Source of the DNA: Bacteroidaceae bacterium
Lineage (GTDB): Bacteria; Bacteroidota; Bacteroidia; Bacteroidales; Bacteroidaceae
Assembly (NCBI GenBank): GCA_017470525.1
Contig: JAFUYM010000029.1
Location: forward strand, 1 to 39,753
DNA length: 39,753 nt
Reading direction: 5' to 3'
Positions 14,587 through 37,340 of the stretch are shown here, one piece after another (the first letter of the stretch is position 1; every line of letters begins with the position of its first letter). The position numbers and the translations under genes were made by a program. The notes beneath the pieces are model-generated. The model searched no databases. It saw only the letters and a program-made list of their open reading frames with translations, and was not told the origin of the DNA.

Positions 14587-14775
14587 GAAACAAGCATCCA
14601 TGTATCTGTTCCCATCCATAAATCGGTACAAGCGATTTATTTGGGGGCATTAGAGGATGTGGAGGGGGCAACTGAAGGAGATGGGGCATTGGTACACTCA
14701 GTATTGATGAATAAAAACACCCAGTGTGAAATGTTCCAGGTACTCGGTGCCTATCATTTCACGCTGGGTTGTTCA
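14587..14775 (+). ncRNA. Candidate small RNA in the yicC-nagB gap
   Basis: This is inferred from the orphan promoter upstream and the 15-bp hairpin at 14719-14769 downstream, which is followed by a weak TTGTT. The gap 14432-14794 holds no convincing gene. The transcript would contain the 23-base palindrome array, and read-through would be antisense to the nagB 3' end. Nothing ties it to a known RNA family. Confidence 0.3.
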
Positions 14776-14786
14776 GAGATTCTACG
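14695..14786. repeat. 23-base-period palindrome array A
   Basis: Small palindromes (ACAC-TCA-GTAT, ACAC-CCA-GTGT, GTAC-TCG-GTGC) are centred at 14699, 14722 and 14745, exactly 23 apart. A fourth, decayed unit begins at 14764. Each unit is a 9-base core (YACYCNGTR) plus 14 variable bases. The segment 14749-14766 is the exact reverse complement of 29471-29488 in array B. Confidence 0.7.
14713..14769 (-). terminator. nagB terminator formed from array A
   Basis: A 15-bp stem (14719-14733 with 14755-14769, one G-U pair) is followed on the minus strand by GTTTTTATT. It lies about 25 bases after the nagB stop. Confidence 0.65.
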
Positions 14787-14794
14787 AGCGAAGT

Positions 14795-15586
14795 TTATAG
14801 GTTACCGCGCTCTTTGTCAAGATAATACTTGTAAGTACCGACCGTCAATTCATCGCAAGCGGCTTCGTCGCAGACAACGATGGCATGTGGGTGCATCTGG
14901 AGCATGGAGGAAGTCCACTTATGGCTGATGTCGCCGTCGATGCAATGCTTGAGGGCACGTGCCTTGTTGTGACCACTACATACGAGCAGCACCTCCTTGG
15001 CATCCATCACGGTGCCGATACCGACGGTAAGAGCCTGTTTGGGCACAAGGCTGAGGTCACCATTGAAGAAACGACTATTGGCATGGATGGTGTCGGTGGT
15101 GAGGGTCTTGATGCGGGTGCGTGAGGTGAGAGACGACCCCGGCTCGTTGAACGCAAGGTGTCCGTCGGGACCAATACCGCCCATGAAGAGGTCGATACCA
15201 CCTGCTTCAGCAATAAGTTCTTCATAGTGGTTACACTCGGCAACAAGGTCGGGGGCATTGCCATTGAGGATGTGTACATTCTCACGTTTGATGTCGATGT
15301 GGTTGAAGAAGTTGTTCCACATAAAACTGTGATAACTCTCTGGATGTTCTTCTGGCAGTTTCACGTATTCGTCCATGTTGAACGTGATGACGTTTTGGAA
15401 AGAAATCTTGCCAGCACTGCACATGTCAATCAGGTTGCGGTAAAGACCAAGTGGTGAGGATCCAGTTGGACAACCCAAAACGAATGGCTTTTCGGGTGTT
15501 GGATTGGCTTCGATGATACGGTTTGCCACGTAGTTGGCAGCCCATTTTGAAAGGGCCTCGTAATCGGGTTCAATAATTACTCTCAT
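14795..15586 (-). CDS. nagB: Glucosamine-6-phosphate deaminase
   Basis: NagB converts glucosamine 6-phosphate to fructose 6-phosphate and ammonia in amino-sugar use. The 263 residues align over the whole length with the E. coli enzyme. The phosphate loop is PTGSSPLGLYR. Catalytic D72 lies in FNMDEYV, and D141, H143 and E148 lie in GIGPDGHLAFNEPG. No -7 box was found in the 74 bases before it, so it is probably the last gene of the unit that starts at the 20772 lipoprotein. The array A hairpin follows. Confidence 0.97.
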   Translation of the reverse strand: MRVIIEPDYEALSKWAANYVANRIIEANPTPEKPFVLGCPTGSSPLGLYRNLIDMCSAGKISFQNVITFNMDEYVKLPEEHPESYHSFMWNNFFNHIDIKRENVHILNGNAPDLVAECNHYEELIAEAGGIDLFMGGIGPDGHLAFNEPGSSLTSRTRIKTLTTDTIHANSRFFNGDLSLVPKQALTVGIGTVMDAKEVLLVCSGHNKARALKHCIDGDISHKWTSSMLQMHPHAIVVCDEAACDELTVGTYKYYLDKERGNL

Positions 15587-15660
15587 AATGTCGTTTTGTT
15601 TTTGAGGTTAGTTATTATTTAAGTCTTATATGTTTGTAAAATCAATGAATTTGTCATTTT

Positions 15661-16719
15661 CTATTGGAGAGGATTCCAGCCTTGCGCTTTGAGTTCAAAC
15701 TCTGCTCCGTCGCGAGTAATCAAGGCGCACCCGAGACTCTCTTTGGTGATGTGACCAATGAGTTTCACGCCTTCCATCTGTTCAATTTTCTCGTGGTCGG
15801 TAATGGGGACAGTGAACAGGAGTTCGTAATCTTCGCCTCCGTTGAGGGCTGCAGTGGTGAGGTTCATGTTCAGTTCCTCTGCCATGACGGCTGTCTGGTA
15901 GTCGATGGGGATGCGTTCTTCGTAGATGCGGCATCCACAATGGCTTTGGGTGCAGATGTGGAGCAGTTCAGAAGAGAGTCCGTCGCTGATGTCCATCATG
16001 GCAGTGGGGTGGATGCCAGCCTCTTGCAAGCGGAGGATGATGTCACGGCGTGCTTCGGGCTTCATCTGGCGTTCGAGCAGGTATTCACGACCGCTGAAGT
16101 CGGGTTGAGAGATGGCAAGACGTTCGGCATCGGTCTTGACTGTTTCAATCTGCTTATAATAGACTTCTTTCTCACGTTCAAGCAGTTGGAAACCCATGTA
16201 TGCCGCTCCGAGGTCTCCGCTCACACAAATGAGGTCGGTCTCTTTTGCTCCGTTCCGATAGATGGCTTTTCCTTTCTCCACCTCACCAATGGCGGTGATG
16301 GAAATGGCAAGTCCTGTGCGTGAACTGGTGGTATCGCCTCCTACAATATCAACTTGGTGTTCTTCGCATGCCAAGCGTAGTCCTTCGTAAAAGTCTTCCA
16401 AATCTTCCACACTGAATCGTTTGCTCAAGGCGAGGCTCACGGTGATTTGCTTGGGCATTCCCCCCATTGCATAGATGTCGGAGAGATTGACCATTGCAGA
16501 TTTGTACCCCAGATGCTTCATGGGCATGTAAGTCAGGTCAAAGTGTACCCCCTCCATCAGCAGGTCGGTGGTGACAAGGATGTCTTTGTCATCATCGTAT
16601 TTCAACACGGCACAATCGTCACCCACTCCGTATTTTGTTTCAGGGTTCTTTAGTTCGATGTTTTCTGTGAGTCGTTTGATGAGACCAAACTCGCCGAGTG
16701 TTGCTATTTCTGTTGCCAT
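15661..16719 (-). CDS. thiL: Thiamine-monophosphate kinase
   Basis: ThiL phosphorylates thiamine monophosphate to the active diphosphate cofactor. The 352 residues show GVGDDCAVL, TTDLLMEGVHFDL, NLSDIYAMGG, VGGDTTSS and the late MDISDGLSSELLHI and NGGEDYELLF motifs that build the Mg-ATP site. It starts three bases after the lpxK stop, so translation is probably coupled. No other thiamine gene is nearby. Confidence 0.96.
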   Translation of the reverse strand: MATEIATLGEFGLIKRLTENIELKNPETKYGVGDDCAVLKYDDDKDILVTTDLLMEGVHFDLTYMPMKHLGYKSAMVNLSDIYAMGGMPKQITVSLALSKRFSVEDLEDFYEGLRLACEEHQVDIVGGDTTSSRTGLAISITAIGEVEKGKAIYRNGAKETDLICVSGDLGAAYMGFQLLEREKEVYYKQIETVKTDAERLAISQPDFSGREYLLERQMKPEARRDIILRLQEAGIHPTAMMDISDGLSSELLHICTQSHCGCRIYEERIPIDYQTAVMAEELNMNLTTAALNGGEDYELLFTVPITDHEKIEQMEGVKLIGHITKESLGCALITRDGAEFELKAQGWNPLQ

Positions 16720-16722
16720 TTA

Positions 16723-17760
16723 CTATTTTCTTTTTAATTGATTGAGAATGTTGTTGTGTGAGTTCTTCAACACATAGTTTTGGATGATTTGGTCGAACTC
16801 CTTTGCTTTCTCATCGAGAAACTCCACTTCAATGGGAATAACCTTGAGGTTTTTGAGACCATGCAGACGGGTGGCATCCTTTTCGGTCGTGAGAATAGTG
16901 CGACCTGCCGCTTTGGAACGGATATCCTCGATGTCTTGAGGGGAGAAGGGGTGGTGGTCAGGAAAACTCATCATCTCGAACTTCGGTATGAGTTTGCTGA
17001 GATCGTATTCCATCTGTTCAGGTGAGGCAATGCCCGTGACAAGCAGTGGATTGTCACCCACATCCTTGATGCTCTTGGGGTATCTGTAAGTGGTGAAAAA
17101 GAGGTGTTGCCAGTTTCCGAGGTCAAGGCTTCGTTCTATGCCTCGACAGTCCATCGGGGTGAGGTAGCGTGGGCATTTGGTGACAATCACGATGTCGGCA
17201 CGGAGTCGTCCTGATAGTTGTTCACGTAACCGCCCTGCTGGTAGCAGTTTGTCGAAATAGATGAGACGGTGGTAATCCATTAGCAAGATGTTGATACCCG
17301 CCTGCACATAACGGTGTTGGAAGGCATCGTCAAGAATGACCACATCGGTGGATGGTTTCACATGGTCTTTCATCAGTTGCTCAATGCCATGACAACGGTC
17401 TTTGTCCACTGCCATGTGAATATTCGGGAACTTATGCTTCATTTGGTAAGGTTCATCGCCAATTTCAGTCATAGGCGTGTCCTTTGTTGCCAGCACAAAC
17501 CCTTTGGATTTTCTTTTATATCCACGACTCAACACTGCCACCTGATACTGCTTGGAAAGCAACCGAACCAGATATTCCGTATGCGGGGTCTTGCCTGTGC
17601 CCCCCACAGTGAGGTTTCCTACACAAATGACAGGCAATTGGAATTTCTTGGATTTGAGCACACCATAATCGAACATCAGGTTTCTGATGCCTACCACAAG
17701 CCCGTAGAGCCAAGAGAATGGCAAGAGCCAATAGTTGATTTTGATGTGGTCGCCTTCCAT
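16723..17760 (-). CDS. lpxK: Tetraacyldisaccharide 4'-kinase
   Basis: LpxK adds the 4'-phosphate to the lipid A precursor at the inner membrane. From this ATG the protein has 345 residues and begins MEGDHIKINYWLLPFSWLYG, with a membrane-associated N-terminal helix followed by the P-loop VGNLTVGGTGKT. VILDDAFQHRYV is the family's Asp-rich motif, and LLVTGIASPEQ and TTEKDATRL come later. A longer frame begins at 17826, but it would overlap the upstream gene by about 57 bases and lacks family similarity. The chosen start leaves an 8-base gap. Confidence 0.95.
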   Translation of the reverse strand: MEGDHIKINYWLLPFSWLYGLVVGIRNLMFDYGVLKSKKFQLPVICVGNLTVGGTGKTPHTEYLVRLLSKQYQVAVLSRGYKRKSKGFVLATKDTPMTEIGDEPYQMKHKFPNIHMAVDKDRCHGIEQLMKDHVKPSTDVVILDDAFQHRYVQAGINILLMDYHRLIYFDKLLPAGRLREQLSGRLRADIVIVTKCPRYLTPMDCRGIERSLDLGNWQHLFFTTYRYPKSIKDVGDNPLLVTGIASPEQMEYDLSKLIPKFEMMSFPDHHPFSPQDIEDIRSKAAGRTILTTEKDATRLHGLKNLKVIPIEVEFLDEKAKEFDQIIQNYVLKNSHNNILNQLKRK

Positions 17761-17768
17761 GCTAATGA

Positions 17769-18959
17769 TTATTTCTTCTTTCCTGCGATTCTTCCTGCTA
17801 AACTTTGATCCGCGAAATAATTGCAAAACTCATAGGCTGCTAAAAGCCATGCGCCTGTACCAAAGGGGGCTTGCGATTTGGCATTGACAGTCTTGGTCGG
17901 GTCGGGTTTCTCACCGATGGGTTGCACGTAACCAATGCTTCCATCGGGTTGGAGTGCCACCTCAAAGAGGTATTTATATGCTTTTTGGATGGTCTCTTGG
18001 TATTGTTCACGAGGGAGAATGAGGTGGTTTACTCCCCACAGGATACCAAACGTGAAGAAGGCCGTTCCAGAAGTCTCATAGCCTGGAGCATCATCGGGGC
18101 AAAGCATGGAGCGTGTCCAATAACCTTCGGGCTGTTGGCACTTGGCAACTCCTTCTGCTAATTTCTTGAAGCGGTCAATGTAGAAAGGACGGTATTTACA
18201 GTCTTGTGGGAGGTCTTCCAGTACTTGTGCCAAACCTGCCAGCACCCATCCTGCACCACGTGCCCAGAATGATTTGCCATTGTTGCAAGCGGTCTTTACC
18301 TTCGGATAAACATACTTGCCGTCGCGATAATAAAGTTGTTCTTCGGTGTCGAACAATAAACTGTCCGTCCATTTGAAACACTCATACTGTTTGTCAAGCA
18401 ATTTTTGGTCATGAGTGACAGTATAGAGTTTAGAGAAGATAGGTAATCCCATATACAAGGCATCTGCCCACCACCAATAGTCTTTTTCAGGAGTGGAAGC
18501 CTGATAGCACATCACTTCGAGGGCTCGCTGGATGCGTTCGGCACGGTGTTCCTGCTTGTAGAGATCAATATACACCTGGAAGCAGATTTGCCAGTCGGCG
18601 AAGAGGACATGGTTCATGCCTTCGCCATAGGTCTTGTATTCCCATTTGGTCTTGTCCGTCTGTGTGGCACCTTGCCAGTGATTGTATTCAGCCCATTCGA
18701 TGGCATAGTCAAGATATCTCTTATTAGGGAATCTGCGATATACCCTCTGATTCGCTGTGAAGTAAGCGGCATTGTCCCAAAATGCACGACATTTGGGAGA
18801 ATTGTGACTCTGCCAGTAGTCGTTGACTTTCACTGTGGCATCTTCGACTTCTTTGACAAGTTTTCTTCCTATTTCCAATCTCTCGTCCAAAGCGGATTGT
18901 GCTACAGATGTTTGTGCCATGAGCACTATCCCGAGCATAAGTGTTGTGAATCGTTTCAT
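17769..18959 (-). CDS. Glycoside hydrolase family 105 protein (unsaturated rhamnogalacturonyl hydrolase type)
   Basis: A 396-residue exported protein with a signal peptide cut near VAQS (about 20-22) and an (alpha/alpha)6-barrel pattern. The family motif WWWADALYMG holds the likely catalytic D166. GEGMNHVLFADW, FWARGAGWVLAGL and GYETSGTAFFTFGI are further GH105/88 landmarks. Such enzymes remove the unsaturated uronic acid left by pectate or rhamnogalacturonan lyases, or by ulvan-type lyases; the exact substrate cannot be read here. It is oddly placed, within 8-16 bases of housekeeping genes (cca before it, lpxK after it) and with no SusC/SusD or lyase genes nearby. Confidence 0.9.
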   Translation of the reverse strand: MKRFTTLMLGIVLMAQTSVAQSALDERLEIGRKLVKEVEDATVKVNDYWQSHNSPKCRAFWDNAAYFTANQRVYRRFPNKRYLDYAIEWAEYNHWQGATQTDKTKWEYKTYGEGMNHVLFADWQICFQVYIDLYKQEHRAERIQRALEVMCYQASTPEKDYWWWADALYMGLPIFSKLYTVTHDQKLLDKQYECFKWTDSLLFDTEEQLYYRDGKYVYPKVKTACNNGKSFWARGAGWVLAGLAQVLEDLPQDCKYRPFYIDRFKKLAEGVAKCQQPEGYWTRSMLCPDDAPGYETSGTAFFTFGILWGVNHLILPREQYQETIQKAYKYLFEVALQPDGSIGYVQPIGEKPDPTKTVNAKSQAPFGTGAWLLAAYEFCNYFADQSLAGRIAGKKK

Positions 18960-18975
18960 TTTGTAATTCAGTTTT

Positions 18976-20490
18976 TTATAGGTTAGTAATTGTTGTCAAT
19001 CCCATTTTCTTGCCTTCTTCGATGAGCAGGGCTTTGGCAGGCTCGTACTCATTGGGAATTTTTCCGTCGAGAATGGCATCTTTTATCACGGTTTTCAACA
19101 TACCCACTTCCTTGCTGGGCTTCAACCCAAACATCTCCATGATTTCCTCGCCGCTGACGGGCGGTTGGAAATTGCGGATTCGGTCTTTTTCCTCGATTTC
19201 CACCAGTTTGGTGCGCACGGCAATGAAGTTGTCGATGAATTTCTTCTTTTTTACTTCATTCTTCGAAGTGATGTCAGCGGTGCTGAGAATCATCAAGTCG
19301 TCTATGTCATCGCCAGCCTCGAACAGAAGTCTTCGCACGGCACTGTCGGTCACTTCTTCGTCGGCAATTACGCTGGGGCGCATGTGCAGTTGCACAAGTT
19401 TCTGCACGAACTTCATTTTCTCGTTCATCGGCAGTTTCATGCGTCGGAAGATAGCGGGAATCATCCGTTCACCAATGTCGTTATGGTTGTGAAACGTCCA
19501 TCCCAACAGAGGGTCAAAGCGTTTGGATTTAGGTTTGCCGATGTCGTGCAGGATGGCAGCCCATCGAAGCCACAATGCGTGGTCTTTGGGAGAATCCCAT
19601 TTGCCGTTGCCTTCGGGGAGGTCGCCGGGGTTGGTGGTGGCTTTTGCCACGTTGTCGAGCACTTCCAAGGTATGGTAGAAGTTATCCTTATGCGCCTTCC
19701 CGTTCTTGGTCTCCACGCCTTGAAGTTGTGCCAATTCGGGGAAGATGAGCGGAAGCAAACCGCAACGCTCTAATTCCACAAATCCTTTGGACGGAATGGG
19801 GGAGAGGATGATTTTGTTCAGTTCATCCGCCACACGTTCTTCGGAGATAATCTTGATGCGTTCCCTATTCCTGCCCAAAGCCTCGAAAGTCTCTTCTTCG
19901 ATGTGGAAATCCAGTTGAGTGGCAAATCGGATGCAACGCATCATGCGCAAAGGGTCGTCGCTGAAGGTGATGTCTGGGTCGAGTGGGGTGGCGATGATTT
20001 TGTCTTCCAAATCAGCCAATCCATCGAATGGGTCAACCAGTTCACCAAATCGCTCCTTGTTCAGGCAGAGTGCCATCGCATTGATGGTGAAGTCGCGGCG
20101 GTTCTGGTCTTCCTCCAAGGTCCCATCTTCAGTAACAGGTTTCCGTGAGTTGCGGTCATAACTCTCCTTGCGTGCTCCCACAAACTCAATCTCCAACTGC
20201 TTATGTTTCAATTGAGCCGTACCGAAGTTTTTGTAGATGGCAATGTGGACTTTCTTTCCAATCTTCTTCTTCAATGCCTCAGCAATGGCGATGCCAGGAC
20301 GTTCCACCTGCTTCTTTTGGTCCACCACCACAATGTCGATATCGTTCGACGGGCGTTCCAAGTAGAGGTCTCGCACCCATCCACCAATCACATAACACTC
20401 CAAACCCAACTCTTCAGCCGTGTCTGAGATGAGACGGAAGAAGGGGTGGTCAATATGTTGGAGTATGTCCTCGTGGGTGAGTAGTTTCAT
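18976..20490 (-). CDS. cca: CCA tRNA nucleotidyltransferase with HD domain
   Basis: A class II nucleotidyltransferase of 504 residues. The head domain carries GGWVRD (36-41) and the metal-binding D50-I-D52. The neck contains NRRDFTINAMAL and the R-rich helix DPLRMMRCIRFATQL. The C-terminal HD domain (AILHDIGKPKSK, then HNHNDIG) suggests an added phosphohydrolase activity. It adds or repairs the 3' CCA of tRNAs; a poly(A) polymerase role is less likely. It lies 18 bases after the small lipoprotein gene and 16 before GH105. Confidence 0.92.
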   Translation of the reverse strand: MKLLTHEDILQHIDHPFFRLISDTAEELGLECYVIGGWVRDLYLERPSNDIDIVVVDQKKQVERPGIAIAEALKKKIGKKVHIAIYKNFGTAQLKHKQLEIEFVGARKESYDRNSRKPVTEDGTLEEDQNRRDFTINAMALCLNKERFGELVDPFDGLADLEDKIIATPLDPDITFSDDPLRMMRCIRFATQLDFHIEEETFEALGRNRERIKIISEERVADELNKIILSPIPSKGFVELERCGLLPLIFPELAQLQGVETKNGKAHKDNFYHTLEVLDNVAKATTNPGDLPEGNGKWDSPKDHALWLRWAAILHDIGKPKSKRFDPLLGWTFHNHNDIGERMIPAIFRRMKLPMNEKMKFVQKLVQLHMRPSVIADEEVTDSAVRRLLFEAGDDIDDLMILSTADITSKNEVKKKKFIDNFIAVRTKLVEIEEKDRIRNFQPPVSGEEIMEMFGLKPSKEVGMLKTVIKDAILDGKIPNEYEPAKALLIEEGKKMGLTTITNL

Positions 20491-20508
20491 GGTGCATCAG
20501 TTCAGTGT

Positions 20509-20772
20509 TTATACCTTTTCATCATCTATTACCTGCTCAAAGTTTAGAACCTCGGCATTCTGGATGCATGCACCATAGAACACGGTGGGGAAAAGTCTTG
20601 GATTCACACCACAATCGCCTAAACACACCATCACATCAGGTATGCTGTTGGAGTTGATGTTCTCCAAACTGCTGGCGTTGGGTGTATCATTGGCAGACTT
20701 TGGATCCGTGGCACTTTTGCTTAAGCACGAAGCGAGAAGTGCTGTCAGTACAATCGCAAGATATTTCTTCAT
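20509..20772 (-). CDS. Small lipoprotein of unknown function
   Basis: An 87-residue protein with a lipoprotein signal: a charged start MKKY, a hydrophobic core and lipobox LLASC, with Cys16 the lipidated residue. The mature part is short and Ser/Asn-rich at first, then VMVCLGDCGVNPRLFPTVFYGACIQ, with three Cys that could bind metal or form a disulfide. No family is recognised. It is the first gene of the unit that continues with cca, GH105, lpxK, thiL and nagB. Confidence 0.7.
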   Translation of the reverse strand: MKKYLAIVLTALLASCLSKSATDPKSANDTPNASSLENINSNSIPDVMVCLGDCGVNPRLFPTVFYGACIQNAEVLNFEQVIDDEKV

Positions 20773-20806
20773 CTTCTTTGAGGCTTAAGGTAATACTTTG
20801 TGGTTG

Positions 20807-20814
20807 CAAAGATA
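20807..20814 (-). promoter_or_regulatory. -7 box of the lipoprotein-cca-nagB unit
   Basis: TATCTTTG on the minus strand lies 35 bases before the lipoprotein ATG. No TTG is seen at the usual distance. It faces away from the plus-strand lipoprotein promoter at 20889. Confidence 0.65.
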
Positions 20815-20888
20815 TGAAAAAAATGAAAAAAATAGGTGGAAGAGTTCAGTTTATTTGCGAAAAAAGGTCTTTTTGTGCAAAATCTCCT

Positions 20889-20896
20889 TATCTTTG
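20889..20896 (+). promoter_or_regulatory. -7 box of the plus-strand lipoprotein gene
   Basis: TATCTTTG lies 17 bases before the ATG at 20913 and excludes the longer upstream reading frame as the start. Confidence 0.65.
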
Positions 20897-20912
20897 CCAC
20901 AAAACTGGTGGT

Positions 20913-21458
20913 ATGAAAAAGATTACAAGTGCCATGCTGTTGCTGTGGATGTTGTATGCTTGTGGGAAGCATCCATCGGCTGTAGAACAGCGTAAAGAGG
21001 AAATTCGACGGAATGATTCATTGGAGTTAGTTCAGACCAGGATTGACCTTGCTGCCGCTGACAGTATGGCAACGTTTAAGGCATTTGAGTTGGAGGACTT
21101 AGAAAAACAATTCGTTTTCGAAAAGCAAGAAAAGTATCAGACGATGGGTTATTATGTCTTGCCCTCATATGCTGGCAGCAAGGCGAAGTTCTCGTTCTTC
21201 CCCGAAGTGGAAGAGGGCGGAAAATTGTTTTTTGTGACAATTGATAAGACACGTCAATACTCATTTACAGAGATTTCTCTTGACGGAGATGACTACACAC
21301 CCCAACTCCCACAAGGGCTCTCAGAAGCCATGAAACGTGACATTGCCCAATGTTATTCTCTTGCCAAAACAATGCAGGATCTTCAGACGGCTCAAAAGCA
21401 GCAAGAAAAATTGGCTCTGAAAGTGAAATTCTTTGAGAAAAAATTGGAGGATGATTAA
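20913..21458 (+). CDS. Putative lipoprotein of unknown function
   Basis: From this ATG the protein has 181 residues. A lipoprotein signal MKKITSAMLLLWMLYAC has Cys17 as the lipid site. The next 60 residues are highly charged and helical (VEQRKEEIRRNDSLELVQ, DLEKQFVFEKQEKYQ). A short beta-rich middle follows (GYYVLPSYAGSKAKFSFFPEV), and the end is a likely coiled coil (DLQTAQKQQEKLALKVKFFEKKLEDD). No family is recognised. The open frame reaches back to 20682, but that part lies before the promoter box. It starts divergently from the cca unit. Confidence 0.75.
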   Translation: MKKITSAMLLLWMLYACGKHPSAVEQRKEEIRRNDSLELVQTRIDLAAADSMATFKAFELEDLEKQFVFEKQEKYQTMGYYVLPSYAGSKAKFSFFPEVEEGGKLFFVTIDKTRQYSFTEISLDGDDYTPQLPQGLSEAMKRDIAQCYSLAKTMQDLQTAQKQQEKLALKVKFFEKKLEDD

Positions 21459-21468
21459 GCGTATATAT

Positions 21469-21540
21469 CGTACCCCTCGACTACGACGTGGCGTACCCCT
21501 CGGGTACGGCATGACGTACCCGAGGGATATGGTATGACGG
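21469..21540. repeat. 23-base-period palindrome array C
   Basis: CGTACCC starts at 21469, 21492 and 21515, exactly 23 apart, with a decayed CGGGACT at 21538. Each unit is a 17-base palindrome (perfect in the second: CGTACCC-CTC-GGGTACG) plus a 6-base linker (ACGTGG, GCATGA, GTATGA). Units two and three also pair with each other (21497-21507 with 21516-21526). It lies between the convergent lipoprotein gene and tsf, ahead of the tsf terminator. Confidence 0.75.
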
Positions 21541-21561
21541 GACTATGTTGTGGCTGTTGTG

Positions 21562-21604
21562 AAAAATAAAAGAGGAACACATTTCTGAAATGCGTTCCTC
21601 TTTT
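21562..21604 (-). terminator. Terminator of the rplM-rpsI-rpsB-tsf unit
   Basis: An 18-bp stem with one mismatch (21568-21585 with 21587-21604) is followed on the minus strand by ATTTTT. It starts 22 bases after the tsf stop. Confidence 0.8.
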
Positions 21605-21625
21605 GTATAGATTCGATAGGGTTTC

Positions 21626-22618: not shown

Positions 22619-22647
22619 AACTATTTTCGTTTATTAAAAGATGATTA

Positions 22648-24715: not shown

Positions 24716-24721
24716 GGCTTG

Positions 24722-29180: not shown

Positions 29181-29254
29181 GTGACAATTCTTCAGGGGTT
29201 TCAAGTCCAGTTTTTTAGTTTGGCGGCAAGCCATCTTCCCATTCCCCTCCACTG

Positions 29255-29262: not shown

Positions 29263-29464
29263 CAGCATTTTTCTTTACCCTACACATGCTTTGTATGGAA
29301 ATCTTCAAAATTCATCTCAAAATTAAATAAAATAAAGATTTTTATAGGACAAAATTATCTTCTCTTTTTGAAAACTGTTGTGAGAGGTGATGTTGGACGT
29401 CGTTCACCATATTTTTCTCAAAAACATTGTAATTGTTGAAATGACAGATGGTTGTGTAAAAGTG

Positions 29465-29545
29465 GGCACTCAGCGTGAAATGATAGGCGCTGGGTGCTCG
29501 TAATTTTATACGCAGGGTGCGTGAAAAGAGAGGCGCAGGGTGCGC
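29465..29545. repeat. 23-base-period palindrome array B
   Basis: CGCWGGGTG cores start at 29488, 29511 and 29534, exactly 23 apart. The last two are palindromes (ACGCA-GGG-TGCGT and GCGCA-GGG-TGCGC). A degenerate unit precedes them, and GCACTCAGCG/CGCTGGGTGC can also pair over 32 bases. The segment 29471-29488 is identical to part of array A in reverse orientation. Apart from this array the gap 29263-29741 shows only AT-rich sequence and the inverted repeat listed separately. Confidence 0.75.
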
Positions 29546-29666
29546 ATATAGGAAGATGTTGACATCGGAAGATACAATCAAACTTGTTTTTGATGAAATG
29601 TAAGCGATGGTTTTGGGGTGAAAGATGAACAAAAAGAAAATATTTTGTGGTTGGATGGCATAATTT

Positions 29667-29718: not shown

Positions 29719-29741
29719 TATGAATTATCAATTAAAAGTTG

Positions 29742-29749
29742 TAAATTTG
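29742..29749 (+). promoter_or_regulatory. -7 box of the DUF4861 gene
   Basis: TAAATTTG lies 26 bases before the ATG. No TTG occurs at the expected -33 position. Confidence 0.5.
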
Positions 29750-29774
29750 TACCCCAATAACTAACTAAGACCTT

Positions 29775-31022: not shown

Positions 31023-31044
31023 AGAGTGAACAATTTTTTATGAA

Positions 31045-31695
31045 TTAACTTTTCTTGTTGAACTTCAAACCAAGATACATTCCTTTGTATTGGCTCAGTA
31101 CGGTAGCCACAGAACCCATCTGGTTGGAATAGGCACTTGCTTTGTTGGCGATGGTGCTTACGATTTCGAGCATCTTGTCAGCGTTCATGGCAAGTTGCAA
31201 TGTGCCGAGCGAGATTTTTGCATTCGTCTTGATGCTTCTGGCTGGTGTCTTGAAGTTGAGGGTCACATTGGAACTCTCAATGTCGTAGGTGCCCGAAAAC
31301 GATTTCTTGCCGACGGTCATGGTGAAAGTCTTGTCCGTGTTGAATGTGATGGACACTTTGCCCGACTTGATGCCCGCCTTTTCGAGACCTTTCTTCAGTT
31401 TCTCCTCTATTTTCGACGATGCAACACTGCCGCCGATGTTGCTGAGCACACTTTCGCTTTCGAAGGCGACGCAAGGTTGTGTATAGACCCATGTGCCAGC
31501 AAGGCTTTTCTCTGAAATCTTGCCAGAGCCGAGCAGATCGCCTATGATGTCGGTGACCGTTCCAGCAGTGGAGGACGAACCAGAGATGGCATCCTTTGCT
31601 CTTCCCAGAATCTCTTCCAACTGTGCATTCATGGTGGTGGGCATGATGAATGCCACCATTGCAGCGAGGGCAAATTTGATGATGTTCTTTTTCAT
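31045..31695 (-). CDS. DUF4923 family exported protein
   Basis: From this ATG the protein has 216 residues and a signal peptide MKKNIIKFALAAMVAFIMPTTMNAQ. The mature part has a helical start (LEEILGRAKDAISG), a lipocalin-like strand pattern (LAGTWVYTQPCVAFES, VSITFNTDKTFTMTVGKKSFSGTYDIESSNVTLNF) and an end matching DUF4923. A longer frame to 31791 is excluded by the -7 box at 31761. Function is unknown; a lipid or small-molecule binding role is a guess from the strand pattern. Confidence 0.8.
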   Translation of the reverse strand: MKKNIIKFALAAMVAFIMPTTMNAQLEEILGRAKDAISGSSSTAGTVTDIIGDLLGSGKISEKSLAGTWVYTQPCVAFESESVLSNIGGSVASSKIEEKLKKGLEKAGIKSGKVSITFNTDKTFTMTVGKKSFSGTYDIESSNVTLNFKTPARSIKTNAKISLGTLQLAMNADKMLEIVSTIANKASAYSNQMGSVATVLSQYKGMYLGLKFNKKS

Positions 31696-31760
31696 AATTT
31701 TGTGCTTAATGATGAGTGTATAAGAATGAATAATATGTGTGCTGATAACAAAAAACGTTG

Positions 31761-31768
31761 CAAAATTA
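31761..31768 (-). promoter_or_regulatory. -7 box of the DUF4923 gene
   Basis: TAATTTTG on the minus strand lies 66 bases before the DUF4923 ATG. Confidence 0.55.
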
Positions 31769-31810
31769 CGAATCATGAATGAATTTTGCAATAAAATCTT
31801 CCCAAGAGCC

Positions 31811-31841
31811 TTGTAGTTTAATGAAATTTAAACTATCTTTG
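31811..31841 (+). promoter_or_regulatory. Promoter of the divIC-like gene
   Basis: TTG (31811-31813), a 20-base spacer and TATCTTTG (31834-31841) match the consensus. The ATG follows 46 bases later. Confidence 0.75.
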
Positions 31842-31887
31842 TGCCCTGATTTTCATTCATCTTATATATTAGGAGGGCGATTGACCT

Positions 31888-32187
31888 ATGAAAAGTAGCA
31901 TTAAGTATTGGATTTTTAAGTTGAAGTATGTGGTCGCATTGGCAATCTTCGTGGGTGTGATTGGTTTTGTGGGAGAAACCAGCCTTGTGAACCGCATCGG
32001 TCAGCAGCAGGAAATTTCGCGGCTGAAGAGTGAGATTGACGATTACAACCGTAAATTTGAGCAGGACAAGAAGACGCTGGAAGCCTTGAAGCATGACATC
32101 GAGGCAGTCAAGGAGGTGGCTCGTAGCCGCTACTACATGAAGACGGACAATGAGGACATCTTTATTGTGGAGGATGACGAGGAGTGA
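31888..32187 (+). CDS. Septum formation initiator family protein (FtsB/DivIC-like)
   Basis: A 99-residue bitopic membrane protein with a short cytoplasmic N terminus, one membrane helix (about 14-31, YVVALAIFVGVIGFVG) and a periplasmic coiled coil (about 38-75, QQQEISRLKSEIDDYNRKFEQDKKTLEALKHDIEAVKEVA). The RSRYYMKTDNEDIFIVE end is the conserved part of the family. Such proteins join FtsL and FtsQ/DivIB in the divisome. The gene shares its promoter with the next membrane protein. Confidence 0.88.
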   Translation: MKSSIKYWIFKLKYVVALAIFVGVIGFVGETSLVNRIGQQQEISRLKSEIDDYNRKFEQDKKTLEALKHDIEAVKEVARSRYYMKTDNEDIFIVEDDEE

Positions 32188-32227
32188 ATCTCCGGGTTTC
32201 TGTGTATCATGAAGAAGAAATGAATCT

Positions 32228-32629
32228 ATGGATAAAGAGAAAGTTTTAGGAATCATTGAGGTGGTTGGTTTGAGCATGGTGTGGGTGGCAGCATGTGTGT
32301 GGATAGTCAATAAGCCCGAAATCCGTTTTTTGGCGTGTGTGTTGATGGCTGTCGCCACCGTAGTGCTGGCATTGGGACGCTTCATGCAGACCCCGTTTTA
32401 TGAGAACTATCCGCAGAGCGACCCGAGAGAGTTGACCCTCCGCAGATTGTACCATCAGCGTGTGTTTGGCATTGTTGGGCTGATTTTGGCTGCAGTCCTG
32501 ATGTTTGTGCCAGCAGGTTTCTATGCAGGCATGTATGTGGGACCCACCTCATGGCTGATACCCTTCGTGTTCTTTGTCGTGGTCGAAGTGTACACTGCAT
32601 TTCGCATTTCTGCCGTTGAAAAGGGTTAA
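32228..32629 (+). CDS. Small multi-pass membrane protein of unknown function
   Basis: A 133-residue protein with four hydrophobic segments (about 7-26, 32-50, 80-98 and 107-125) and a charged loop between the second and third (QTPFYENYPQSDPRELTLRRLYHQRVFG). No family is recognised. It follows the divIC-like gene after 40 bases on the same strand, so a role near the division or envelope machinery is possible but unsupported. Confidence 0.75.
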   Translation: MDKEKVLGIIEVVGLSMVWVAACVWIVNKPEIRFLACVLMAVATVVLALGRFMQTPFYENYPQSDPRELTLRRLYHQRVFGIVGLILAAVLMFVPAGFYAGMYVGPTSWLIPFVFFVVVEVYTAFRISAVEKG

Positions 32630-32698
32630 AAATATGTAAATCTTGACACAACCATTCATTTCTTTGAGCATCATTTTTTCCACTTTCTGAAAAAGCCG

Positions 32699-32706
32699 TA
32701 TCTTTG
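32699..32706 (+). promoter_or_regulatory. -7 box of purB
   Basis: TATCTTTG lies 170 bases before the purB ATG. The leader behind it has small hairpins (GACTC/GAGTC at 32727-32743, GCGTC/GACGC at 32808-32822). No known purine riboswitch core was seen. Confidence 0.6.
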
Positions 32707-32875
32707 CATTGTAAAAGCAAATGATGGACTCAGTGAAAGAGTCACAAAGATTTGAAACCAATAAAACTATCTGAAATTACAAAGTAAGAAGACAAAAAAG
32801 GCTTTCAGCGTCTCGGGGACGCAAATACATACACAATTATATATATAAATGGAATAGCAAAAACGGAAGAAAAAT

Positions 32876-34222
32876 ATGGAACTGAATGCACTTACGGCGG
32901 TTTCACCTATCGACGGCCGTTACAGAAGCAAGACACAAGACTTGGCTTCGTATTTCTCTGAATATGCATTGATTAAGTATCGTGTCCGTGTTGAAATCGA
33001 GTATTTCATCACGTTGTGCGAGTTGCCCCTTCCTCAACTGAAGAGTTTCGACCAGAGCCTCTTCGAGCGTTTGCGCGACATCTACCGCAATTTCTCGGAG
33101 GCAGATGCTCAGCGTGTGAAAGACATTGAGAAGGTGACCAACCACGACGTGAAGGCAGTGGAATACTTCATCAAGGAGGAGTTGGACAAGATAGGTCATT
33201 TCGACGATTACAAAGAGTTTATCCATTTTGGCTTGACCAGCCAGGACATCAACAATACATCGGTTCCTCTTTCCATCAAGGATGCCTTGGCTGAGGTGTA
33301 TTATCCACAGGTGGAAGAACTGATTGCTCAACTGAAAGAGTATGCCGACGAGTGGAAAGACATCCCGATGTTGGCAAAAACGCATGGTCAGCCGGCATCG
33401 CCTACCCGTTTGGGCAAGGAGGTGATGGTGTATGTGTATCGCCTCACCGAGCAACTGAATCAGTTGAAGGCTTGCAAGATTACGGCAAAGTTTGGTGGCG
33501 CGACAGGCAACTATAACGCGCACCACATCGCTTACCCTGCCTACGACTGGAAAGCCTTTGGCAACAAGTTCGTGAGCGAGAAGTTGGGCTTGGAGCGTGA
33601 GCAATGGACAACGCAGATTAGCAACTACGACAACATGGGTGCTATCTTCGATGCCATGAAACGAATCAACACCATCATCATCGACCTCGACCGCGACTTC
33701 TGGATGTATGTCTCGATGGAATACTTCAAGCAGAAAATCAAGGCTGGCGAGGTGGGTTCTTCGGCAATGCCACACAAGGTGAATCCGATTGACTTCGAGA
33801 ACTCGGAGGGCAACCTCGGCATGGCGAATGCGATTCTGGCATTTTTGAGCCAGAAGTTGCCAGTGAGCCGTTTGCAGCGCGACCTGACCGACTCGACGGT
33901 GCTCCGCAATGTGGGTGTGCCAATGGGTCACATGGTCATCTCCATCCAATCGACACTGAAGGGTCTGCGCAAACTTCTGCTCAATCAGGATGCCATCAAC
34001 CGCGACCTCGACAACTGCTGGGCAGTGTGTGCAGAAGGCATCCAGACTATCCTTCGTCGTGAGGCATATCCACATCCTTACGAGGCACTCAAGGCACTCA
34101 CCCGCACCAATGCTGCCATCACAGCCGAAAGCATCGCCGGCTTCATCGATGGGCTGGAGGTGTCGGACAGCGTGAAAGCGGAATTGAGAGCCATCACTCC
34201 CCACACTTACACAGGAATTTAA
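32876..34222 (+). CDS. purB: Adenylosuccinate lyase
   Basis: PurB removes fumarate from SAICAR and from adenylosuccinate in purine synthesis. The 448 residues belong to the E. coli-type branch. Motifs are FGLTSQDINNTSVP, AKTHGQPASPT with the likely acid/base His170, and the signature GSSAMPHKVNP at 294-304 with catalytic Ser295. It begins a plus-strand run with the pseudouridine synthase and asnS. A long antisense open frame (32903-34204) is a shadow of its codon use. Confidence 0.97.
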   Translation: MELNALTAVSPIDGRYRSKTQDLASYFSEYALIKYRVRVEIEYFITLCELPLPQLKSFDQSLFERLRDIYRNFSEADAQRVKDIEKVTNHDVKAVEYFIKEELDKIGHFDDYKEFIHFGLTSQDINNTSVPLSIKDALAEVYYPQVEELIAQLKEYADEWKDIPMLAKTHGQPASPTRLGKEVMVYVYRLTEQLNQLKACKITAKFGGATGNYNAHHIAYPAYDWKAFGNKFVSEKLGLEREQWTTQISNYDNMGAIFDAMKRINTIIIDLDRDFWMYVSMEYFKQKIKAGEVGSSAMPHKVNPIDFENSEGNLGMANAILAFLSQKLPVSRLQRDLTDSTVLRNVGVPMGHMVISIQSTLKGLRKLLLNQDAINRDLDNCWAVCAEGIQTILRREAYPHPYEALKALTRTNAAITAESIAGFIDGLEVSDSVKAELRAITPHTYTGI

Positions 34223-34280
34223 GAGAGAAAAATAAATAAAAAGATTGTAAATTGTAAAAAGTTAAATTGTAAATTAAATT

Positions 34281-35699
34281 ATGTCTGAAATTGAAGAATG
34301 GCAGGGCAAAGCACCTGCGGCAGAAGAAAAACCCGAAAATGGCGGTGACCGCGAGGGCTATCGTCCATCTTACAACCGTGAAGGCAACATGGGTGGTCGT
34401 CCATCTTATAACCGTGGTGACCGTCCGCAGCGTCCTCGTTTCAATCGTAATGAGCGTGCTGCATACAGTTCAAATGGCGTACAGAACGAGCGTGGATTCC
34501 GTCCATCAGGTTTCGGTGGCTCTTCTTCCGAAGAAGGTGGCTATCAGCCTCGTCAGGGCGGCTATCAGCCTCGTCCTTATAATAATGGTGGCTATCAGCA
34601 GCGTGGCGGTTACCAGCAGCGTGGTGGCTACAACAATCAGCGTGGTGGCTACCAGCAGCGTGGCGGCTACAACAATCGTGGCTATCAGCAGAATGGTGAC
34701 CAGGAAGGTTACGAGCAGCAGGGTGGCTATCAGCCACGCCAGGGTGGTTATCAGCCACGTCAGGGCGGTTACCAGCAGCGTGGTGGCTACAACAACCAGC
34801 GTGGTGGTTACAACAACCAGCGCGGTGGCTACAACAATCAGCGTGGTGGTTACAACAACCAGCGCGGTGGCTACAACAATCAGCGTGGTGGTTACAACAA
34901 CCAGCGTGGTGGCTACAACCCGAATGCGAAGTACAGCCTGAAGAAGCAGATTGAGTACAAGGAGTACTTGGAAGACCCCAATGCACCTATTCGTCTCAAC
35001 AAATTCTTGGCAAATGCTGGTGTATGCTCTCGCCGTGAGGCAGACCAGTTCATTCAGGCAGGTGTTGTTTCTGTCAACGGTCAGGTGGTCACTGAACTCG
35101 GAACAAAGGTGCAGCGCACCGACCAGATTCACTTCCACGACCAGTTGGTGAGCATCGAGAAGAAGGTGTATGTCATCCTCAACAAACCCAAGGATTATGT
35201 GACCACTTCTGATGATCCACAGCAGCGCAAGACCGTGATGGACCTCGTGAAGAACTGCTGCCGCGAACGCATCTATCCTGTAGGTCGTCTCGACCGCAAC
35301 ACTACCGGTGTGCTCCTCTTCACCAACGATGGCGACCTTGCCTCCAAGTTGACCCATCCTAAGTTCCTCAAGAAGAAGATTTACCATGTCTTCCTCGATA
35401 AGAACCTCACCGCTGCCGACATGAAGCAGATTGCCGAGGGCATCACGCTAGAGGATGGCGACATCAAGGCAGATGCTATCAGTTACGCCTCCGACACCGA
35501 CCGCAAGCAGGTGGGCATCGAGATTCACTCTGGCAAGAATCGCATCGTGCGCCGTATCTTCGAGAGCCTTGGCTACAAGGTGTGCAAACTCGACCGCGTC
35601 ATGTTTGCAGGTCTCACCAAGAAGGGCATCAAGCGTGGCGATTGGCGCTTCCTCACCGAGCAGGAAGTGGCAATGCTGCACACAGGACATTATGAATAA
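34281..35699 (+). CDS. RsuA/RluB family pseudouridine synthase with long low-complexity N-terminal tail
   Basis: A 472-residue protein in two parts. Residues about 1-215 are disordered and made of Gly, Tyr, Asn, Gln and Arg, first GGYQPRQ/GGYQQRG-like units, then six tandem copies of YNNQRGG. Residues about 233-472 form a complete enzyme: an S4 RNA-binding domain (IRLNKFLANAGVCSRREADQ) and the catalytic domain with Asp338 in GRLDRNTTGVLLF. It modifies uridine in ribosomal RNA, most likely 23S (RluB type), but the exact site is not shown. The RGG/YNQ tail resembles RNA-binding, phase-separating tails. It lies between purB and asnS, 58 and 12 bases away. Confidence 0.92.
   Translation: MSEIEEWQGKAPAAEEKPENGGDREGYRPSYNREGNMGGRPSYNRGDRPQRPRFNRNERAAYSSNGVQNERGFRPSGFGGSSSEEGGYQPRQGGYQPRPYNNGGYQQRGGYQQRGGYNNQRGGYQQRGGYNNRGYQQNGDQEGYEQQGGYQPRQGGYQPRQGGYQQRGGYNNQRGGYNNQRGGYNNQRGGYNNQRGGYNNQRGGYNNQRGGYNPNAKYSLKKQIEYKEYLEDPNAPIRLNKFLANAGVCSRREADQFIQAGVVSVNGQVVTELGTKVQRTDQIHFHDQLVSIEKKVYVILNKPKDYVTTSDDPQQRKTVMDLVKNCCRERIYPVGRLDRNTTGVLLFTNDGDLASKLTHPKFLKKKIYHVFLDKNLTAADMKQIAEGITLEDGDIKADAISYASDTDRKQVGIEIHSGKNRIVRRIFESLGYKVCKLDRVMFAGLTKKGIKRGDWRFLTEQEVAMLHTGHYE
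34782..34919 (+). repeat. 21-bp in-frame tandem repeat in the pseudouridine synthase gene
   Basis: Six full 21-bp units and a partial one encode GGYNNQR. Units two and four end in CGC and units three and five use AAT, so 34803-34844 and 34845-34886 are identical 42-bp blocks. This points to recent duplication of a two-unit block and to length variation between strains. Confidence 0.85.
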
Positions 35700-35711
35700 A
35701 TAAGGAAACAG

Positions 35712-37133
35712 ATGAAAAGAACAAAAATCATAGACCTCCTTCAGCGCACCGACTTCGGTGCCGAGGTCACCGTCATGGGTTGGGTTCGCACCAAGCGAGG
35801 CAGCAAGGCTGTCAACTTCATCGCCCTTAACGACGGTTCCACCATCAAGAACGTGCAGGTGGTGGCTGATGTGGAGAAGTTCGACCCCGAAATGATGAAA
35901 CAAATCACCACCGGTGCTTGTCTTTCAGTGACAGGCACGATGGTGGAATCCATTGGTTCGGGTCAGGCTGTGGAAGTGCAGGCAACCGAAATCAAGGTGT
36001 TTGGTGAATGTCCTGCCGACTACCCTATGCAGAAGAAAGGGCAGTCCTTCGAGTATATGCGCCAGTATGCCCACATGCGTCTGCGCACCAACACGTTCGG
36101 TGCTGTGATGCGCATTCGCCACAATATGGCAATGGCAATCCACACCTACTTCCACGAGCACGGCTACTTCTACTTCCACACCCCCATCATCACAGCCTCC
36201 GACTGTGAGGGTGCAGGTCAGATGTTCCAGGTGACCACCAAGAACCTCTACGACCTGAAGAAGGACGAAAACGGCTCCATCATCTACGACGACGACTTCT
36301 TCGGCAAGCAGACCTCTCTGACCGTCTCCGGTCAGTTGGACAGCGAACTGGGTGCCACCGCATTGGGTGCCATCTACACCTTTGGTCCTACTTTCCGTGC
36401 CGAAAACTCCAACACCCCTCGCCATTTGGCTGAGTTCTGGATGATTGAGCCGGAAATTGCCTTCATGGATTTGGACGACCTCATGGATCTCGAGGAAGAC
36501 TTCATCAAGTATTGTGTTCGTTGGGCACTCGACCACTGCAAGGACGACCTCGACTTCCTCAACAAGATGATTGACAAGGGACTCATCGAACGACTCGAAG
36601 GCATTCTCAAGGAAGACTTCGTGCGTCTGCCTTATACCAAGGGCATCGAGATTCTGCAGCAAGCCATCAAGGACGGCAAGAAGTTCGAGTTCCCATGCAA
36701 CTGGGGCGACGACCTTGCCAGCGAGCATGAGCGTTTCTTGGTGGAAGAATACTTCAAGAAGCCTGTCATCATGACGAACTACCCCAAGAAAATCAAGGCG
36801 TTCTACATGAAGATAGACGAGAAGAACCCTGTTCTCGACGGCAAGGAGATGGAGCAGACCGTGCAGGGTACCGATGTGCTCTTCCCACAGATAGGCGAAA
36901 TCATCGGTGGTTCCGTCCGCGAAGAAGACTACGGCAAACTGATGAACGAAATCGAGGAACGTCAGATTCCGATGAAGGACATGTGGTGGTATCTCGACAC
37001 CCGCAAGTTCGGTTCCTGCCCCCATGCAGGTTTCGGTCTCGGCTTCGAGCGTCTCATCCTCTTCGTCACAGGTATGCAGAACATCCGCGACGTTATTCCA
37101 TTCCCACGCACCCCGAAGACCGCCGAATTCTAA
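35712..37133 (+). CDS. asnS: Asparagine-tRNA ligase
   Basis: AsnRS charges tRNA-Asn directly. The 473 residues have the N-terminal OB-fold anticodon domain ([24 protein letters not shown]) and class II catalytic motifs. Motif 2 is [21 protein letters not shown] and motif 3 is [29 protein letters not shown]. The WMIEPE pattern and NSNT fit AsnRS rather than AspRS. It starts 12 bases after the pseudouridine synthase. Confidence 0.97.
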
Positions 37134-37206
37134 AGACGCGTCATTGCGAAGCGCTTGCATGGCAAGAACCGTTAAGAAGAACTTCCGAAAGTAGAATAAT
37201 AAGATA

Positions 37207-37340
37207 AGAGGGTGGGTCAAATTACATCGTTTCAACTCCTCGAAACCGACATCGTCGATGTCGGTTAACCGATGTCGACGACGTCGGTCGGTCGATGTCG
37301 ATTCAGAGGCTATAGAAGCATGTAATTTGACACACCCTCT
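37207..37340. mobile_element. 134-bp MITE-like element with terminal inverted repeats
   Basis: The 21 bases at 37207-37227 (starting AGAGGGTGGGTC) and at 37320-37340 (ending GACACACCCTCT) are inverted copies with one mismatch. They enclose palindrome array D and no gene. No target duplication is obvious at the ends. It could instead act as a very long terminator hairpin behind asnS. Confidence 0.6.
37246..37300. repeat. 23-base-period palindrome array D
   Basis: CCGACATCGTCGATGTCGG (37246-37264) is a perfect 19-base palindrome with a 4-base linker. CCGATGTCGACGACGTCGG follows exactly 23 bases on (37269), palindromic with one G-T pair. A half unit TCGATGTCG starts another 23 bases on (37292). 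Confidence 0.8.

What the first reader, a model, noticed from the sequence alone, without database searches (positions are those of the whole stretch)
14695..37300. Four intergenic arrays of unrelated palindromes share an exact 23-base period
At 14695-14786, 21469-21540, 29465-29545 and 37246-37300 short palindromes recur at exactly 23-base spacing (centres 14699/14722/14745 and 29493/29516/29539; starts 21469/21492/21515 and 37246/37269/37292). The palindrome sequence is specific to each locus (ACACCCAGTGT-like, CGTACCC-GGGTACG, GCGCAGGGTGCGC, CCGACATCG-CGATGTCGG), but the period is constant and the units have a 9-base core plus 14 less conserved bases. Constant period with changing sequence suggests that spacing is what is selected or copied. 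Possible causes are a dedicated repeat-making enzyme, arrays of DNA-binding sites at about two helical turns, or stacked RNA hairpins. I know of no described element with this layout.
Basis: seen in the sequence. Interest (0 to 1): 0.82.

Follow-up and report, generated by a model that had tools for sequence, protein, structure and literature searches.

The report
Fixed-pitch palindrome arrays between genes
Many short repeated DNA elements between the genes of this Prevotella-like bacterium are built from about three similar blocks set exactly 23 bases apart whatever the sequence of the blocks, and two sampled relatives from other genera keep equally strict spacings of 21 or 22, which suggests that an unknown protein measures the distance.

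Summary
In 833 kb of this genome 40 intergenic loci repeat at lag 23, against 0-7 at each of lags 19-22 and 24-26. The four window arrays are three families: arrays 1 and 3 are the same one. A fifth array lies at 551-590. The commonest unit is a 17-bp imperfect palindrome plus 6 bp, usually three per array. With the gap left free, 72 of 72 pairs of one family sit at exactly 23, in 9 of 45 congeneric genomes. Single genomes of other genera have other periods: 22 (50 of 50 rows) and 21 (67 of 68 listed rows). Several families are MITE-like, resembling the 23-nt BrickBuilt MITE of Porphyromonas; others lack TIRs. The arms of a unit do not covary, which argues against RNA hairpins. Linker bases vary but keep a purine/pyrimidine pattern. 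Best reading: mobile intergenic repeats organised as a lattice of binding sites for a protein with a fixed step of about two helical turns. The lattice is shown; the protein is inferred and unidentified. New variant of a known kind.

The parts
551..590 (+). family B array, two units of 17 bp (551-567, 574-590), with a CTTTCAGCACCTCTCTTT end just before it
14691..14773 (-). array 1: family F, four diverged units at 23 bp, orientation -+++ on the minus strand
   Evidence: weak alone (p=0.009), supported by gapless alignment with seven other F arrays
21469..21531 (+). array 2: family C, three units of 17 bp with two 6-bp linkers, orientation ++-, starting 10 bases after the stop codon of the upstream gene (20682-21458)
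   Evidence: orthologous array in L271 and L280
29342..29568 (+). F-type dispersed element of about 225 bp carrying array 3 near its right end
   Evidence: 33 matches in the own genome, of different lengths
29466..29546 (+). array 3: family F, four units at 23 bp
37208..37339 (+). MITE-like element around array 4, with 20-bp terminal inverted repeats at 37208-37227 and 37320-37339
37247..37300 (+). array 4: family A, two full units (37247-37263, 37270-37286) and a third shortened by a 9-bp deletion

Best explanation
The arrays are dispersed, non-coding intergenic repeats whose core is a lattice of usually three (family F: four) roughly two-fold-symmetric sites at one fixed pitch: 23 bp in this genus, 22 or 21 in sampled genomes of other genera. 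Several families (A, B, D, K) are MITE-like: the same short terminal inverted repeat, in fixed register with the lattice, encloses different interiors, and some A copies have longer outer TIRs. Others carry the lattice bare (C) or inside a 225-bp repeat without TIRs (F). Shown: genome-wide excess, exact pitch, preference for three units, different pitch in other genera, presence and absence between species, no covariation of arms, linkers constrained to a purine/pyrimidine pattern. Inferred: the pitch is held by a DNA-binding protein that sits as neighbouring dimers or oligomers on about two helical turns per site and reads linker shape more than base sequence. The likeliest candidates are the transposase that moves the elements in trans, or an architectural or silencing protein that coats them. 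New block sequences are tolerated only if they stay in register.
For: Excess at one lag. 72 of 72 C pairs at 23 with periods 17-31 allowed; 50 of 50 rows at 22 in G010; 67 of 68 listed rows at 21 in G015. Five clusters without mutual similarity at lag 23 in this genome. Three units in 19 of 20 C and 7 of 8 B arrays. The TIR lies at exactly -9 from the first unit in 26 of 36 A ends and 6 of 16 B ends, and five TIR pairs enclosing A, K or D interiors all span 99 bp. R/Y-constrained linkers in A, B and C, and in the inter-site DNA of G015. No covariation of arms. In orthologous C arrays linkers change more than arms: 6 of 12 against 5 of 42, and 4 of 12 against 2 of 42, loops 0 of 9.
Against: No protein is identified, and no gene could be shown to track the arrays. 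Only 11 of 18 A arrays have three units in the strict search, and A does not show the ++- order. C arrays have no TIR (3 of 40 ends). Families A, K, B and, more weakly, C align in register, so part of the shared period may be plain inheritance. Period by genus rests on one genome each outside g1; G013 shows no clear peak (3 at 21, 2 at 22). Isolated pairs in three other genomes of G015's genus are at 21, 21, 22, 23 and 23. R/Y constraint could in part reflect transition-biased mutation.
Confidence: 0.45

Rival explanations
1. Inherited register without a ruler: all families of a genome descend from one founding periodic element. Sequences turned over, but the period could not change because every unit would have to shift at once.
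For: A-K-B align in register with scores 22 and 19, B-C 12 and C-F 11 against a shuffled maximum of 12; K is part A-like and part B-like. Units are lost in multiples of 23. A and D share the TIR.
Against: D, E+G, F and H have no detectable similarity to A-C in their units and sit in different carriers. G010 has six k-mer clusters at 22. Linkers are changed yet not shortened or lengthened in 72 of 72 C pairs.
Confidence: 0.3
2. Structured RNA: the arrays act in transcripts as stacked hairpins or one long hairpin (terminator, mRNA protection).
For: Strong predicted folds for all four arrays, z -4.7 to -8.7. Modest excess between convergent genes: 12 of 38 classified arrays, against 37 of 232 gaps of 90 bp or more. 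Array 2 starts 10 bases after a stop codon.
Against: No covariation of arms and no complementarity of the two linkers (p 0.90-0.98). 7 of 38 classified arrays lie between divergent genes. At the array-2 locus relatives have a separate hairpin with a T run further on (by eye). No Rfam match in the window. Folding z-scores follow from the palindromes themselves.
Confidence: 0.1
3. REPIN-like elements moved by a REP-associated tyrosine transposase (RAYT).
For: Intergenic, palindromic, dispersed, lineage-restricted; one Y1_Tnp protein of 326 aa in the genome.
Against: No lag-23 array within the 3.2-kb locus of that gene; no shared terminal tetranucleotide noticed across families; mostly three units rather than two; several families for one gene.
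Confidence: 0.08
4. A repeat-making enzyme or replication slippage writes 23-bp tandem copies locally.
For: Units are lost or gained in whole steps in the MITE copies; one G010 array has eight copies.
Against: Units of one array are not more alike than units of different arrays in B and C; the count stays at three in most B and C arrays; units occur in both orientations, which slippage does not make.
Confidence: 0.06

Closest known systems
BrickBuilt MITE of Porphyromonas gingivalis (PMC4596501)
   Same: Intergenic, 23-nt tandem repeats, most non-conserved sites in the latter half of the unit, flanking segments with terminal inverted repeats, multi-copy, lineage-restricted (abstract and sections 5, 7, 8 as read).
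   Different: One sequence family with 1 to 22.8 units and IS5-like TIRs (GAGACCTTTGCA). Here several families share the period, three units predominate, TIRs are other sequences, some arrays have none, and other genera use 21 or 22.
REP/REPIN elements with RAYT transposases (PMC3733652 passages; REPIN papers seen in listing only)
   Same: Short intergenic palindromes in many copies, grouped and in both orientations.
   Different: REPs of that survey carry GTAG or CGTC tags and pairs lie 20-100 bp apart in most; here the pitch is exact and no array lies by the Y1 gene.
PINSR, 188-bp repeat of Prevotella intermedia/nigrescens (PMC4755523, abstract and passages)
   Same: Intergenic, about 180 copies, no TIR, restricted to a sublineage; resembles the F element as a kind.
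   Different: No internal period is described in the passages read.
Multi-site operators and transposon ends (lambda OR, Tn7, Tn552, Mu; recalled, no call)
   Same: About three near-palindromic or tandem sites at roughly two helical turns bound by one protein: an analogy for geometry.
   Different: There one sequence and one cognate protein; here many loci and several sequences. Three A, B and C patterns had no exact match in the viral collection.

Membership tests
BrickBuilt MITE | 23-nt tandem unit | tested here: met
BrickBuilt MITE | terminal inverted repeats of the BrickBuilt/IS5 type (GAGACCTTTGCA) | tested here: not met
   TIRs here are GAGGGTGTGTCAAAWTACAT and CTTYCACARCCTCTRAA, by comparison with Table 2 of PMC4596501
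BrickBuilt MITE | sequence similarity of the unit | not tested
   the unit is given in a figure that I could not see
MITE | short non-coding element with terminal inverted repeats in many copies | tested here: met
   long-TIR A copies: 24 TIR hits making 11 close pairs and two single ends; short-TIR A, K and D elements of 99 bp
MITE | target-site duplication | tested here: inconclusive
   flanks show no consistent duplication
MITE | autonomous partner with the same TIR | tested here: not met
   no distant TIR pair at up to 3 or 2 mismatches (the one 843-bp pair is coding); the genome is 83% complete and no relative was searched for it
MITE (C and F arrays) | terminal inverted repeats | tested here: not met
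   C flanks: 3 of 40 ends with CCTC near; F ends not inverted repeats of each other, by eye
REP/REPIN | cognate RAYT gene flanked by its repeats | tested here: not met
   one Y1_Tnp gene, no lag-23 array in its 3.2-kb locus
REP/REPIN | GTAG or CGTC tag at one end of the stem-loop | not tested
   no systematic test was run
structured RNA | covariation of paired bases | tested here: not met
   a pattern-limited test on A, B and C only
protein-binding lattice | a protein that binds the sites with the stated pitch | not testable with these tools
   sequence evidence only

The most novel reading that the evidence does not exclude
A lineage-specific molecular ruler: an undescribed oligomeric DNA-binding protein, perhaps a transposase shared by several element families, that reads site spacing and the purine/pyrimidine pattern of linkers more than base sequence, so that unrelated intergenic elements of one genome must all keep one period, and the period moves as a whole (21, 22, 23) when the protein changes between lineages.
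Probability: 0.3. Interest if true: 0.88.

Novelty: new variant of a known kind. Interest (0 to 1): 0.72.

Why it matters
Periodic mobile repeats such as BrickBuilt were described as single-family oddities. Here the period looks like a property of the genome and not of the repeat: several families without detectable similarity share it to the base, and sampled genomes of other genera use a different value. That predicts a common, lineage-specific factor and gives a direct way to find it: the binder that fails when the linker is changed by one base. It also offers a model for how element families can change sequence while staying recognisable to one machine, and points to a class of intergenic lattices, roughly 200 in this genome by extrapolation, that gene-centred annotation passes over.

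Tried and rejected
Chance: rejected. RNA hairpins: disfavoured. RAYT adjacency: not found. Autonomous IS with the same TIR: none found in this genome; the one TIR pair 843 bp apart on contig 79 lies in coding sequence. Phage operators: three exact patterns (A, B, C) had 0 hits in the viral collection. Orthologous gaps carrying different families (L056 against L077, L037 against L088 and L123) are not used as evidence, because L074-L130 were fetched for holding family A. Ortholog pairs for rates of change: only L044/L150 and array 2 in L271 and L280 were usable; one search gave 3 more places among 84 arrays, none informative. In an early note I counted 8 of 12 changed linker bases in L044/L150; the recount is 6 of 12. 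Target-site duplications: not resolved. A first clustering by shared 9-mers merged families by single linkage in this genome and was replaced by ungapped scores; at the lowest threshold (12) those also fall to three clusters. Filters that drop rows: low G+C, overlap with crude ORF calls of 100 or 120 codons, and repeats of period 1-12; these ORFs are not an annotation, and one search also has 10 lag-23 loci on the coding side. In one search, 11 of 51 arrays overlap an ORF call and 2 lack a neighbour, so gene order is known for 38. In one search identical duplicate stretches were dropped before counting. The unit searches use family patterns, so arm conservation cannot be read from them, larger compensatory changes would be missed, and the 109 A units include chance matches (53 have a GAC or GTC centre); linkers lie outside the patterns. 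The linker test gave no result for G010, where too few distinct linkers were held. L074-L130 (43 lag-23 arrays in 436,871 bp) are not a fair sample and are not used for the excess. The output was cut.
Full report
OBSERVATION. Tandem Repeats Finder reports arrays 2 and 4 at period 23. Best runs at lag 23 exceed every one of 1000 shuffles for arrays 2, 3 and 4; array 1 is weaker (p=0.009). Arrays 1 and 3 are one family: eight F arrays, with array 1 reversed, align with no gap inside the array, four units. Array 4 lies inside a MITE with TIRs at 37208-37227 and 37320-37339. Of the 14 copies aligned, 10 have three units, L013 has two (minus 23 bp), L016 and L017 have one (minus 46), and the window copy lacks 9 bp of unit 3. 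A fifth array, family B, lies at 551-590.

GENOME-WIDE TEST. The window is contig 26 of a genome of 3,236,980 bases in 83 contigs, 83% complete. In 832,830 bp (40 stretches plus the window; 77,641 bp outside ORFs of 100 codons or more) lag 23 gives 40 intergenic loci; the other lags from 10 to 60 give 0-7, except lag 14 (11) and lag 46 (15, the double). On the coding side lag 23 gives 10, not unusual there. With simple repeats removed and the window left out, lag 23 gives 44 and the other 15 lags from 16 to 31 give 26 together. Palindromes of 7+3+7 give 25 intergenic pairs at spacing 23 and 13 at 46, 0-6 elsewhere. A separate scan lists 51 merged arrays in the sample, about 200 per genome by extrapolation; 11 of the 51 overlap an ORF call.

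FAMILIES. Family names are mine. A: CGAYRTC-GWC-GAYRTCG (array 4). B: CGGACTG-CTC-CAGTCCG. C: CGTACCC-CTC-GGGTACG (array 2). K: CGATGTG-CTC-CACATCG with some B-like halves. D: GGGTAAGACTCTCTCCC. E and G; F (arrays 1 and 3); H. Ungapped local scores (maximum of 300 shuffled pairs 12) put 43 arrays in five clusters at thresholds 14, 16 and 18: A+B+C+K (28), E+G (6), F (4), D (4), H (1); at threshold 12 in three. Representative pairs align in one register: A-K 22, B-K 19, E-G 19, B-C 12, C-F 11. L278 of a relative has a 16-bp palindrome plus 7 bp, again 23.

ANATOMY. Of 20 C arrays 19 have three units and one four; of 8 B arrays 7 have three and one two; of 18 A arrays 11 have three and 7 two in this strict search. 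Judged by the CTC/GAG centre, order is ++- in 14 of 20 C and 5 of 8 B arrays; A, judged by GAC/GTC, shows no such rule. Close neighbours in the A, B and C unit scans are 23 apart in 60 of 63 cases; the others are 6, 6 and 46. A and B ends carry a motif like CTTYCACARCCTCTRAA, with CCTC at exactly -9 from the first unit in 26 of 36 and 6 of 16 ends; C has CCTC near in 3 of 40; background 3.9% per 16-nt window. Five TIR pairs in the own genome span exactly 99 bp; by position they hold A (two), K (one) and D (two) interiors. The TIR motif recurs once at 23 bp in the sample.

LINKERS AND ARMS. The 6-bp linkers vary in base but not in class. The purine fraction by position is 1.0/0/.93/.2/1.0/.13 in B (15 linkers), 1.0/0/.21/.86/1.0/.07 in A (29) and .56/.05/.78/.12/.93/.37 in C (41). 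Information in R/Y is 4.36, 4.32 and 2.11 bits of 6 for B, A and C, against null maxima of 1.33, 0.67 and 0.42. S/W and K/M stay within their null ranges for B and C; in A they reach 1.55 and 1.42, above their nulls (0.61, 0.50) but far below R/Y. In G015, another genus and another sequence, 16 distinct inter-site stretches have R/Y 6.74 bits of 13 (null maximum 1.44), S/W 2.82 (2.37) and K/M 2.04 (1.70). The two arms of a unit do not covary (identical halves: A p=0.12 of 109 units, B p=0.99 of 24, C p=0.29 of 36). The two linkers are not complementary (p 0.90-0.98), and units of one array are not more alike than units of different arrays, except a small excess in the tandem comparison of A (6.21 against 6.05 of 7). 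In orthologous C arrays the linkers change more than the arms: L044 against L150 6 of 12 and 5 of 42; array 2 against L271 and against L280 4 of 12 and 2 of 42 each; loops 0 of 9. This is the pattern of sites read by a protein, partly through shape, rather than of base-paired stems. Transition-biased mutation is a caveat, though B arms vary mainly by G/C exchange and two linker changes of array 2 are transversions.

OTHER SPECIES AND GENERA. Family C, both units exact, occurs in 9 of 45 genomes of the genus. With the gap left free from 2 to 16 all 72 forward places have gap 8, that is period 23. A family A pattern was found in 57 stretches of Prevotellaceae, Bacteroidaceae and Bacteroidales MAGs, many with ruminant names. 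In other genera of the family the period differs. G010 (280 kb): 18 arrays at 22, none at 23, one at 21. G015 (280 kb): 14 at 21, one at 22. G022 (220 kb): 5 at 22. G013 (220 kb): 3 at 21, 2 at 22, 2 at 20, no clear peak. G002 (80 kb): one at 22. G113, of the window's genus: 7 at 23, other lags up to 4. G010 has six k-mer clusters at 22. Free-gap searches: GGARCRYGCTCC pairs, all 50 rows (37 distinct places) at 22, in 1 of 61 genomes of that genus; CAATAAGG pairs in G015, 67 of 68 listed rows at 21 and one at 22 (109 counted, 68 listed). In three further genomes of G015's genus five rows are at 21, 21, 22, 23 and 23 (4 of 58 genomes have any match); the backward control pattern has five such isolated hits too, so these may be background. 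So the searched families turn over between species, while within one genome the period is nearly invariant. The period of a genus rests on one genome each outside the window's genus.

GAIN AND LOSS. At the array-2 locus, of 29 relatives examined (41 of 45 genomes matched, own included) L271 and L280 carry the orthologous C array, L278 another array, and 26 none above the threshold. At the array-4 locus, of 29 relatives examined (43 of 45 matched, own included) four have a lag-23 array, none of them the MITE: L212, L217, L227 and a two-copy one in L237. The neighbours are mostly ordinary genes: YicC, a glucosamine-6-phosphate isomerase family protein, EF-Ts, a class II tRNA synthetase, DUF4230, DUF4861, a BspA-type LRR protein; one had no Pfam match.

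MECHANISM. I read these as mobile or formerly mobile intergenic repeats organised as a lattice of binding sites. About two helical turns per site puts neighbouring dimers on nearly one face. Symmetric sites, R/Y-coded linkers, a preferred number of three and a register that includes the terminal repeats fit a protein that assembles side by side. Whether it is the transposase or a coating protein is not known. The main rival is inheritance: one founder per lineage, with the register kept because no single indel can change it. Searches support some common descent; searches suggest that more than inertia is at work.

LITERATURE. BrickBuilt (PMC4596501: abstract, sections 5 and 8, first part of section 7, passages) is the closest precedent. 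PINSR (PMC4755523: abstract and passages). GTAG/CGTC REPs (PMC3733652: passages). A survey of periodic repeats (PMC6344855: passages). P. gingivalis resequencing (PMC5771137: passages). REPIN papers were seen in a listing only. Searches and 94 of the held open-access library showed no title or abstract describing a shared exact period across unrelated intergenic repeats or periods that change between lineages; long lists were seen only in part, and subscription papers and preprints were not searched. The comparisons with lambda OR, Tn7, Tn552 and Mu are recalled.

VERDICT. Real, not chance, not ordinary. A new variant of a known kind (minisatellite-bearing MITE-like repeats of Bacteroidales), with a property that I did not find described: the period seems to belong to the genome and not to the sequence.

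Noticed in passing
window 29342-29568: A dispersed F element of about 225 bp with 33 matches of differing length in this genome, with conserved blocks TTATAGGACAAAATTATC and TATAGGAAGATATTGACATC at its ends and a less conserved stretch of constant length between them in the four copies aligned.
   Followed up: partly
L069:1027-2007 (contig 72): A single Y1_Tnp (RAYT-like) gene of 326 aa in the whole genome, without arrays near it.
   Followed up: partly
L080, L097, L099, L102, L104, L109: A nearly identical family A array in six contigs of different assemblies, with flanks of 79-98% identity: either strong conservation or a shared mobile carrier.
   Followed up: no
L093:4563-4803 and L112:1651-1833: Direct repeats at 23 bp of a motif like the reversed terminal repeat (GAGGATGTGGAAG), running on from a family A array.
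   Followed up: no
window 34586-34919: In-frame 18-, 21- and 42-bp tandem repeats inside the ORF 34281-35699, which look like a glycine- and arginine-rich protein tract.
   Followed up: no
own genome sample, intergenic: A smaller peak at lag 14 (11 loci), perhaps 7-bp tandem repeats; not explained.
   Followed up: no
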